Below are positions 17,792 through 57,116 of a stretch of DNA of 64,000 nucleotides, piece after piece. The stretch's first letter is position 1. Each line of letters starts with the position of its first letter. The stretch comes from Hesseltinella vesiculosa (taxonomy: Eukaryota; Mucoromycota; Mucoromycetes; Mucorales; Cunninghamellaceae): positions 372,001 to 436,000 of the forward strand of contig MCGT01000006.1 in NCBI GenBank assembly GCA_002104935.1, read 5' to 3'. The notes beneath the pieces were generated by a model, which was not told where the DNA came from, ran no database searches, and saw only the letters and a list, made by a program, of their open reading frames with translations. The translations under genes were made by a program, and so were the position numbers.

Positions 17792-18065
17792 GATGGACAA
17801 TGTCAACTGAAAGGAAAGAGAGAGAAAGTAAAAAAAAGAGGAGCAAAAAGGAAATAAAAAGGTGGGCGAGGTGCTTCCCCCCTCTTCCCCCCCTTTTCCT
17901 TTTGCTCAAATGATTTCGGTGAGGTTACACAAGACTCAATATACGGTCAGGGTCAAAAAAACGTCATGGCGAAAAAAAAATGAATCACTGTTCGTGTATT
18001 TCTAACCCAAGTCATACAGAGGTCTACCATTTCAAGAAAAAAAAAGGATATAAAATTGTAAAGGT

Positions 18066-55384: not shown

Positions 55385-57116
55385 TCACTTTTTCTTGGGT
55401 GTGCTTGAAGTCGTTGGTTTTTTGCTGGCGCTTTGATGGACGTGCGAGGTGATGCCCTAGTTCGTAAAAAAAAAAAAAAAAAAAGGTGAGACACAACACG
55501 TTGGGTCACGTGAAACAAATGTCGTTGGACTTACGCAGCGCATGGCTTGTAAATCATCGAACAGCTCATCTTCTTTGAGATGCAGTACGAGCGCCGGGCG
55601 TAAAAAAAAAAAAGAGTTAAGGATAGGAGAGATAAGTGTCGTTGGGTTAGTGGTTTAAAAATGCGATTCAGCAATGGGAATAAAAAGGATATCAAGCAAT
55701 TGTTTTCGTTTGCCATTGCTGGACTTGCTTTCAACGTGCTCCATGCCTCGTTTTCTCAAACTACGCTTGTTGCTTCTTGCTTGGGTTTCCATCATCACGT
55801 CTAATAAAACGAACGAGAGAGTATGAGCTTCGGACGGTTGAGCTGACCTCCTTTTTACCAAAGGTGAGATCGTAATTGTCTTTGTCTTCTTTCAGCTTGC
55901 GGCGCTTGTCCTCGAGGACGGCAAAGAGTTTTTCCCGTATTTCATGCTTCTCCGTCTAAAAATAAATAAAAAATGAGTGGGCGGGACAAGAAAAGGAAAA
56001 TAAGGAGTTTTTTTTGGGGTCGTTATTTTTCTTTCTTTCTCTTTTCCAAACTTTACCAGATATTCTTCTTCGGCTTGACGGATTTCCAACAAGAACTGCT
56101 TATCGGTTACGCTTTTTTGATAGTCACGAAACATACGAGAGTCCGTCATGGACTTTTGTCGAATGGTTTCCAGCATGAGCAGCCCTTCTTGATACTTTGT
56201 ATGTGTATCTATTAAAAAATTCCAGGTTGAGCACATCAGTCTTCCCCCCCTGTTTTATTTTCCCGCATCGTCTTGCCGACTTTCTTTACCATTGAGCGCT
56301 TGATCGATTTCCGTTTGAATCATCATCAATTTTTCCCCAAATAACCTATTAGAGGAGGGTCAGCCATGAACAAGGACGATGTCTGATATCGACTACCTTT
56401 CTTTGTGTTTCAAAAATTCGTTGTTCAGAAACTCCACCCGCTGATTTAAATCTTTTCGTCGTTTCAATCGTCGATTGTCAGCAGCTGTTGTATCGTAGTG
56501 AGAAAGAGAGGCAGCTAGATGATTGAAAGAAAGTAAGCACACGCAGCTTGATCTTCTTCTTACCATCATCGTCGTGGTGGTGTTGCGGTTTTTTCACGTG
56601 GGGCTGAGAAACGACAGGGTTGTTTAGGACGGCAGGAGGTAGCGGTGGAGGGGAGCGGTTGACCAAGGAATGGGCTGAAAGGGAAGCAGTGGATGAACAA
56701 GGTGATGTGGATGACAATGAAGGAGCTGGCGGTTGTGACAGAGGGGCTGAGTTGGTAGGAGGGGGTGGCAGAGAGTGCGACGATGGATCTTCCAGTTTAA
56801 CAAAAGGCTTTCCGAGGGCCGAAGGAGGTGGCAAGGTGATGGGAACGTCAGGTGAAGCATTGGTATATGAGTGATGTTTAGAAGGTTGCAGGGGTGCGCC
56901 AGGGGCAGCCAACATGGAGTCTTGTGTGTAGGCTATATGATAACCATTGGACCGATGGCTGTCCAGCTCAAACTTGCTGGACGAGGGAAAGGTATATCTT
57001 TCGGTAGACGATGGCGAGGTCAGCTTGGTCTTGCTGGGGGCAGGTAGTTCATTCGACGGCGAACCATTGGTAAATACAAAAGGCTTGTTAGTTTCTAACA
57101 TGGAAGCCAAGGGCAT
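55385..57116 (-). CDS. Sds3-like subunit of the Sin3-Rpd3 deacetylase complex
   Basis: Eight exons in transcript order (57116-56564, 56484-56397, 56345-56290, 56208-56057, 55955-55859, 55800-55693, 55599-55535, 55456-55385) give 396 residues. The Pro/Ser-rich N-terminal ~185 residues are disordered. Then comes the Sds3/BRMS1 coiled-coil region: RLFGEKLMMIQTEIDQAL, NDTHTKYQEGLLMLETIR (crossing an intron) and FLLEIRQAEEEYL, then EKLFAVLEDKRRKLKEDKD. A basic stretch precedes the conserved end PALVLHLKEDELFDDLQAM. The junction between exons 6 and 7 requires an AT-AC intron (listed separately); with it the frame is continuous. The family stabilises Sin3-HDAC complexes; the Sin3 scaffold itself lies about 3.4 kb away. 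A second in-frame ATG at 57101 could also start it. Confidence 0.85.
55600..55692 (-). other. U12-type (minor spliceosome) AT-AC intron in the Sds3-like gene
   Basis: On the minus strand the intron begins ATATCCTTT, a full match to the U12 AT-AC donor. It contains TCCTTAAC (rc of about 55616-55623), the U12 branch-site consensus, and ends TTTTAC. Its 93 bases contain no GT and no AG, so U2-type splicing cannot explain it. Removal joins phase 1 to phase 1 and links the basic stretch to the conserved Sds3 C-terminus. Confidence 0.92.

What the first reader, a model, noticed from the sequence alone, without database searches (positions are those of the whole stretch)
55600..55692. Exact U12-type AT-AC intron in a fungal Sds3-like gene
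The minus strand shows ATATCCTTT at the donor, TCCTTAAC near the end as branch site, and AC at the acceptor, in a 93-base intron with no GT and no AG at all. The coding phase on both sides matches only if this piece is removed. Minor-spliceosome introns are rare in fungi, and AT-AC ones rarer still. Established knowledge: some zygomycete-grade fungi keep U11/U12 parts, while ascomycete and basidiomycete models have largely lost them.
Basis: partly seen in the sequence, partly recalled or inferred. Interest (0 to 1): 0.85.

Follow-up and report, generated by a model that had tools for sequence, protein, structure and literature searches.

The report
Minor-spliceosome AT-AC intron in Mucorales fungus
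A mould gene carries an intron of the rare AT-AC type that is normally removed by the cell's second, 'minor' splicing machine; the same genome holds RNA genes of that machine and a small set of similar introns, and the public model of this gene gets the intron wrong.

Summary
Confirmed. Window 55600-55692 (minus strand) is a 93-nt U12-type AT-AC intron in an Sds3-like gene of a Mucorales fungus, almost certainly Hesseltinella vesiculosa. Of 50 homologous proteins, 27 continue as this splice predicts and 11 read into 'DILF', the translation expected of G|ATATCCTTTT, so the intron is probably conserved through Mucorales and often missed. The public Hesseltinella model has a false GT-AG intron instead. 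The genome holds U11 and U6atac above Rfam cut-offs; U4atac and a divergent U12 fall below them but pair well with U6atac and the branch site respectively. A motif scan gives 20 hits against 3 control; I accept 16 AT-AC introns (some with doubt; 8 backed by homology across the junction) and one GT-AG minor intron (RPS13). One reader claim is wrong: 93 nt is 31 codons, so the frame survives retention; an in-frame stop is what argues for removal. AT-AC U12 introns in Mucorales are already in print, so this is a new member of a known kind. Less ordinary are the AT-AC excess and the long branch distance (median 22 nt) with pyrimidine-rich 3' ends. No transcripts; minor-spliceosome proteins not established.

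The parts
55385..57116 (-). Sds3-like gene (coding span). Exons 57116-56564, 56514-56397, 56345-56290, 56208-56057, 55955-55859, 55800-55693, 55599-55535, 55456-55385
   Evidence: Gene model; start of exon 2 moved from 56484 to 56514 after comparison with the public protein and homologues (coordinate read). Pfam Sds3 63 bits.
55600..55692 (-). U12-type AT-AC intron, 93 nt, phase 1, no GT and no AG
   Evidence: of 50 homologous proteins 27 continue across the junction and 11 read into DILF
55684..55692 (-). 5' splice site ATATCCTTT; with the next bases it can pair over 8 bp with the 5' end of the genome's U11 (AAAAAGGG) and over 9 bp with U6atac
   Evidence: pairs read from the dot-bracket output
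55616..55623 (-). branch site TCCTTAAC, inside an 11-bp duplex with the U12 candidate that leaves one A bulged
   Evidence: pairs read from the dot-bracket output
55600..55615 (-). TCTTTTTTTTTTTTAC: T-tract and AC acceptor, 17 nt from branch A to the 3' splice site
55565..55735 (-). 171-nt false GT-AG intron implied by the public Hesseltinella protein model (P0001); it deletes 26 residues, part of them conserved in homologues

Best explanation
The segment is a phase-1 U12-type AT-AC spliceosomal intron. U11 pairs with ATATCCTTT and U12 pairs with TCCTTAAC leaving a bulged branch A; [quoted passage not shown] Shown here: the motifs, the protein-level junction, snRNA genes (two above, two below Rfam cut-offs) and their pairing potential. 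Inferred: transcription, splicing by this machine, and the order of steps (recalled from the animal minor spliceosome).
For: Motifs at the exact ends; 5'ss + branch in 0 of 400 null windows. 20 genome hits v 3 control. 27 of 50 homologous proteins run on as the splice predicts (type KRKQxSGPALVFRLK), and 11 of 50 read into DILF, as G|ATATCCTTTT would. U11 62.3 bits and U6atac 56.3 bits, both over gathering score; U4atac 39.9 (E 2.4e-4) and U12 25.1 (E 0.07), both below; none of the four families passes its cut-off in any of the 14 control genomes. Duplexes against 500 mononucleotide shuffles of one strand: branch:U12 -12.9 kcal/mol (0 as good), U4atac:U6atac stem II -27.6 (0), 5'ss:U11 -6.7 (1). 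Seven other AT-AC introns of the genome interrupt a Pfam domain that reads through the junction I chose; NF-YB, prefoldin 5 and DCP2 also align without a gap at the junction to solved-structure chains.
Against: No transcript data. Two of four snRNAs are below Rfam cut-offs, and sub-threshold matches to these families also ring in control genomes (U12 in 7, U4atac in 11 of 14). 5'ss:U6atac pairing (37 of 500 as good) and U4atac:U6atac stem I (85 of 500) are not exceptional, and a U12:U6atac co-fold showed mostly pairing within each strand. U11-48K zinc finger not found above cut-off (15.7 v 21.1 bits); 65K, 35K, 31K, 20K not established. Intron length is a multiple of 3, so frame gives no support. 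The T12 run and 17-nt branch distance are not textbook U12 features (optimum 11-13 nt, no distinct polypyrimidine tract; passage of PMC3584512). That 27 homologues continue across the junction shows the expected protein, not that those species have the intron.
Confidence: 0.96

Rival explanations
1. The segment is skipped as part of another GT-AG intron, as the public Hesseltinella model has it (55735-55565, GTTGAA...GATGAG), or stays in the mRNA.
For: The first is how P0001 is modelled.
Against: It deletes VESKSSNGKRKQLLGPALVLHLKEDE, while 27 of 50 homologues keep the corresponding block. Retention gives a stop after DILFIPIAESHF.
Confidence: 0.03
2. It is a U2-dependent AT-AC intron removed by the major spliceosome.
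For: AT-AC termini are not exclusive to U12-type introns (passage of PMC3584512); the 3' end is T-rich.
Against: Donor ATATCCTTT and branch TCCTTAAC are the defining U12 elements and can pair with U11 and the U12 candidate of the same genome. U2-type AT-AC introns are recalled to start ATAAGT (from no call).
Confidence: 0.02
3. Pseudogene or decayed sequence with a chance motif.
For: None found.
Against: Open reading frame over 8 exons (396 residues; 406 with the corrected acceptor), Pfam Sds3 hit, 76% identity to Gongronella over the query region searched.
Confidence: 0.01

Closest known systems
U12-type introns of Rhizopus oryzae and Phycomyces blakesleeanus (Bartschat and Samuelsson 2010, PMC2846911; passages seen)
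   Same: Same order (Mucorales, recalled), AT-AC subtype present; the GT-AG minor intron near the 3' end of RPS13 reported there has a counterpart here (exact position not compared).
   Different: Their table gives 1 AT-AC and 2-3 GT-AG in R. oryzae and 8-9 AT-AC and 8-12 GT-AG in Phycomyces; here I accept 16 AT-AC and 1 GT-AG, by a different and non-exhaustive method.
Minor introns of Rhizophagus irregularis and Basidiobolus meristosporus (Larue and Roy 2023, PMC10639083; passages, sections 30 and 24)
   Same: Fungal minor introns; all four minor snRNAs reported in Rhizophagus.
   Different: 205 and 249 introns reported there; 17 accepted here. The Rhizophagus count is given as a share of annotated introns; for the gene studied here the public Hesseltinella annotation is wrong.
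Minor spliceosomal RNAs of Lichtheimia corymbifera (PMC4133162; passages seen)
   Same: Divergent U12 (third stem atrophied, last stem short in basal fungi) and divergent second half of U6atac, which fits the low U12 score here.
   Different: U4atac was not detected in Lichtheimia; a 39.9-bit candidate is present here.
AT-AC-rich minor introns of Blastocystis (77% AT-AC; PMC10639083)
   Same: AT-AC majority.
   Different: Unrelated stramenopile, very short introns (median 39 bp); here 62-116 nt.

Membership tests
U12-type (minor) spliceosomal intron | 5' splice site RTATCCTT at the exact exon border | tested here: met
   ATATCCTTT at 55692-55684; border fixed by homologous proteins
U12-type (minor) spliceosomal intron | Branch motif TCCTTRAC shortly before the 3' splice site | tested here: met
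   TCCTTAAC at 55623-55616; 17 nt from branch A to the 3' end
U12-type (minor) spliceosomal intron | Branch distance at the optimum of 11-13 nt | tested here: not met
   17 nt here; median 22 (range 11-37) over the 16 accepted introns. PMC3584512 an optimum, not a limit, so this does not exclude membership.
U12-type (minor) spliceosomal intron | No distinct polypyrimidine tract | tested here: not met
   T12 run here; T-run of 7 or more in 8 of 16 accepted introns. A characteristic, not a strict, feature.
U12-type (minor) spliceosomal intron | AT-AC or GT-AG termini | tested here: met
   AT...AC; no GT or AG inside
U12-type (minor) spliceosomal intron | Minor snRNAs in the same genome | tested here: met
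   U11 and U6atac over gathering score; U4atac and U12 below it, supported by pairing
U12-type (minor) spliceosomal intron | Minor-specific proteins (65K, 48K, 35K, 31K, 25K, 20K, 59K) | tested here: inconclusive
   Only the 48K zinc finger was sought in the genome: 15.7 bits, below 21.1 (a 25-residue profile). A ZCRB1/31K protein search found 1115 proteins, of which the best 120 were listed; I saw no fungus among the named ones. Others not tested.
U12-type (minor) spliceosomal intron | Splicing in vivo that needs U12/U6atac | not testable with these tools
   No transcripts available
Sds3-like proteins (Pfam PF08598) | Sds3 domain match over the curated cut-off | tested here: met
   63 bits v 25.4, residues 199-343 of the model; the match ends before the junction at residue 351

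The most novel reading that the evidence does not exclude
This fungus (and perhaps the Cunninghamellaceae) has a derived minor-splicing system in which AT-AC is the main intron class rather than the minority, and in which the 3' end carries a pyrimidine tract and lies about 20 nt from the branch point, so that 3'-site choice may lean on a U2AF-like tract reader; surveys built on annotated introns may miss many of these introns.
Probability: 0.35. Interest if true: 0.6.

Novelty: new member of a known kind. Interest (0 to 1): 0.4.

Why it matters
It gives a testable set of AT-AC minor introns in a small (27 Mb) fungal genome and shows, at this one site, gene models that replace the intron (public Hesseltinella) or read into it (11 of 50 homologues). 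Surveys built on annotation may therefore undercount AT-AC introns in Mucorales; whether the other introns found here are mis-annotated was not tested. If the AT-AC excess and the T-rich 3' ends hold, they bear on why GT-AG is the majority elsewhere and on how the minor spliceosome chooses its 3' site.

Tried and rejected
AT-AC only: I first read the strict scan (18 AT, 2 GT of 20 hits) as an AT-AC-only genome. The RPS13 gene then showed a clear GT-AG minor intron of 154 nt that the spacing limit had hidden, so that reading was dropped. A longer-spacing scan gave 13 hits v 2 control: 11 AT, several of them copies of repeats, and 2 GT (RPS13 and C7:116578, the latter not examined).

Weaker branch, TYCTTRAC: 20 hits v 3 control; four new ones (L034-L037), none accepted.

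GT with a still weaker branch (CTTRAY): 55 hits v 28 control. I examined 36 of 55: L039-L067 by script (29 loci), L015, L029 and L037, L078-L081. None was convincing. The other 19 were judged only from the printed letters. The reversed-pattern control ignores coding content, so excess over it is not a count of introns.

AT with that branch: 121 hits v 14 control, not all listed. I fetched 7 regions and, two, and one more AT hit (L082).

AT candidates not accepted: L016-L018 (three copies of one repeat), L026, L027, L033 of the strict set; L071, L074, L075; L076, L077; L082. Accepted with doubt: L020 and L031 (an AG acceptor is also in frame), L023 (two AC in frame), L028 (37-nt distance), L069b (gene unknown), L014 and L019 (gene unknown, frame only). 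A frame-only criterion is weak: several GT loci passed it by chance.

The regex counted 12 proteins as reading through; P0167 is spliced by its sequence, leaving 11, confirmed by a search for DILF. I moved P0149, P0161 and P0162 from 'other' to 'spliced' by eye: 27 spliced, 11 reading through, 12 other of 50.

My first gene model used a later acceptor for intron 1; the public protein and homologues favour the earlier one.

A second ATATCCTTT in the window (18043-18051, minus) showed no TCCTTRAC in the 130 bases printed. No tRNA and no Rfam family at gathering score lies in the window. No relatives of this genome are held for DNA comparison; the conservation claim rests on proteins.

Full report
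What is there. The minus strand of 55692-55600 is ATATCCTTTTTATTCCC...CCTATCCTTAACTCTTTTTTTTTTTTAC, 93 nt, without a single GT or AG. It lies in phase 1 inside an eight-exon gene (57116-55385) whose six other introns in the model are GT-AG. The protein has a Pfam Sds3 match (63 bits, cut-off 25.4) that ends eight residues before the junction. Retention gives ...KQLLDILFIPIAESHF and a stop, which is the real argument from the frame.

Organism. The best homologue, P0001 of Hesseltinella vesiculosa, is identical to my model wherever the two models use the same exons, so the window is from that species or something nearly identical (inference). It belongs to Mucorales, Cunninghamellaceae. The genome held has 27.05 Mb in 85 contigs.

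The junction. Two protein searches gave 50 distinct homologues (16, 34 more). Classified by script and corrected by eye: 27 run through the junction into the block (GPALVFRLK and variants with VP or AP) that the AT-AC splice produces; 11 run off into DILF; 12 are truncated, misjoined or too divergent, among them P0001 itself and P0012. The 27 show the expected protein but not that those species have an intron there. DILF is what G|ATATCCTTTT reads in phase 1, so the 11 are best explained as gene models that read into an unrecognised AT-AC intron at the same codon. The ten named ones are from six genera: Cunninghamella, Absidia, Chlamydoabsidia, Mucor, Thamnidium and Rhizopus (names). For Cunninghamella echinulata one model is spliced (P0003) and another reads through (P0008). 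I did not see the DNA of these species, and some entries are near-duplicates (P0153, P0163, P0164). P0001 replaces the AT-AC intron with a 171-nt GT-AG intron (55735-55565) and loses 26 residues.

The machine. U11 (62.3 bits; gathering 39) and U6atac (56.3; 33) are clear. U4atac (39.9; 53) and U12 (25.1; 53) fall below their gathering scores. In the 14 control genomes none of the four families passes its cut-off, but sub-threshold matches ring in 7 (U12), 11 (U6atac), 3 (U11) and 11 (U4atac). The weak two therefore rest on pairing (against 500 mononucleotide shuffles of one strand): U4atac with U6atac in stem II, -27.6 kcal/mol, 0 as good; the branch site with U12 over 11 bp with one A bulged, -12.9, 0 as good; the 5' splice site with the U11 5' end over 8 bp, -6.7, 1 as good. 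Not exceptional were the 5' splice site with U6atac over 9 bp, -9.1 (37 as good), and U4atac:U6atac stem I, -10.3 (85 as good); a U12:U6atac co-fold showed mostly pairing within each strand. The Lichtheimia genome paper reports an atrophied third stem and short last stem of U12 in basal fungi (PMC4133162, passages), which fits the low score. The zinc finger of U11-48K was not found above its cut-off; the other minor-specific proteins were not established.

The other introns. RTATCCTTN{20,78}TCCTTRAC gave 20 hits v 3 for the reversed pattern: 18 start AT (3 of them copies of one repeat) and 2 start GT. I accept 12 of the 20 as introns that splice in frame to an AC 11 to 37 nt from the branch A (L032 is the focal intron). 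A weaker branch added four (L069b, L070, L072, L073). Of these 16, eight are supported by homology across the junction: Sds3, and NF-YB, prefoldin 5, DCP2, LSM12, DNA-PKcs, Gaa1 and a CNH-domain protein by a Pfam match that spans it (with the exon lengths). For L031 (LSM12) an AG acceptor is in frame as well, and L023 (Gaa1) has two AC in frame. The peptides of the calcium channel and the inositol polyphosphate kinase hit the right families, but the match stops before or starts after the junction. One GT-AG minor intron was found, in RPS13, a gene for which Rhizopus and Phycomyces U12 introns are reported (PMC2846911, passages); its Pfam match spans the junction too. So AT-AC outnumbers GT-AG 16 to 1 among accepted introns, or 8 to 1 among those with homology support. 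The scans are not exhaustive: degenerate sites escape them, RPS13 was found only because I looked for that gene, and 19 of 55 weak GT hits were not examined with their flanks.

What is odd. From branch A to the 3' end the 16 introns measure 11 to 37 nt, median 22, and the tail is pyrimidine-rich with a T-run of 7 or more in 8 of 16. [quoted passage not shown] Acceptors were chosen by frame, so the distances carry that choice. Introns of this gene look T-rich in general (seen, not measured), so the tract may be composition rather than function.

Novelty. U12-type AT-AC introns in Rhizopus and Phycomyces are in print (PMC2846911, passages). My searches for U12-type introns with fungi, Hesseltinella vesiculosa, minor intron with AT-AC and fungi, minor spliceosome with Mucor, AT-AC with Mucoromycota, U12 introns with Phycomyces and AT-AC introns with Rhizopus listed, by titles and abstract openings, no paper on this intron or this species' minor introns. 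The library is open-access only, most listed papers were not opened, and supplements were not readable, so the 2023 survey may well include this species. The case is a new, well-supported member of a known kind, with a possible variant in subtype ratio and 3'-end anatomy.

Noticed in passing
L068 (G000 C8:391496 onward): RPS13 carries a 154-nt GT-AG U12-type intron (GTATCCTTTTT...TCCTTAAC...TTCTAG) before its last codons.
   Followed up: yes
L069 (G000 C8:423400-424500): One stretch appears to hold two AT-AC U12-type introns about 360 bp apart, perhaps in one gene; gene not identified.
   Followed up: partly
L025 (G000 C34:216750): AT-AC intron in a voltage-gated cation channel gene (Ion_trans hit; calcium channel Cch1 by recall), just before an EF-hand-like stretch; minor introns in ion-channel genes are classic in animals (recalled; also a reference title).
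   Followed up: partly
L071 and L074 (G000 C2:290350, C19:330500): Two similar stretches, one with a plausible AT-AC intron and one that looks like a decayed partial copy.
   Followed up: no
window 18043-18051, minus strand: A second ATATCCTTT followed by a T-run but no TCCTTRAC branch motif in the next 120 bases; nature unknown.
   Followed up: partly
window 56485-56514, minus strand: Two in-frame acceptors for intron 1 of the Sds3-like gene (AG ending at 56515 or 56485) differing by 10 residues; homologues favour the first.
   Followed up: partly
P0015 (Apophysomyces): The public model fuses a leucine-rich-repeat protein to the Sds3-like protein, probably an annotation fusion of neighbours; P0016 has a similar Pfam list but its sequence was not inspected in full.
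   Followed up: no
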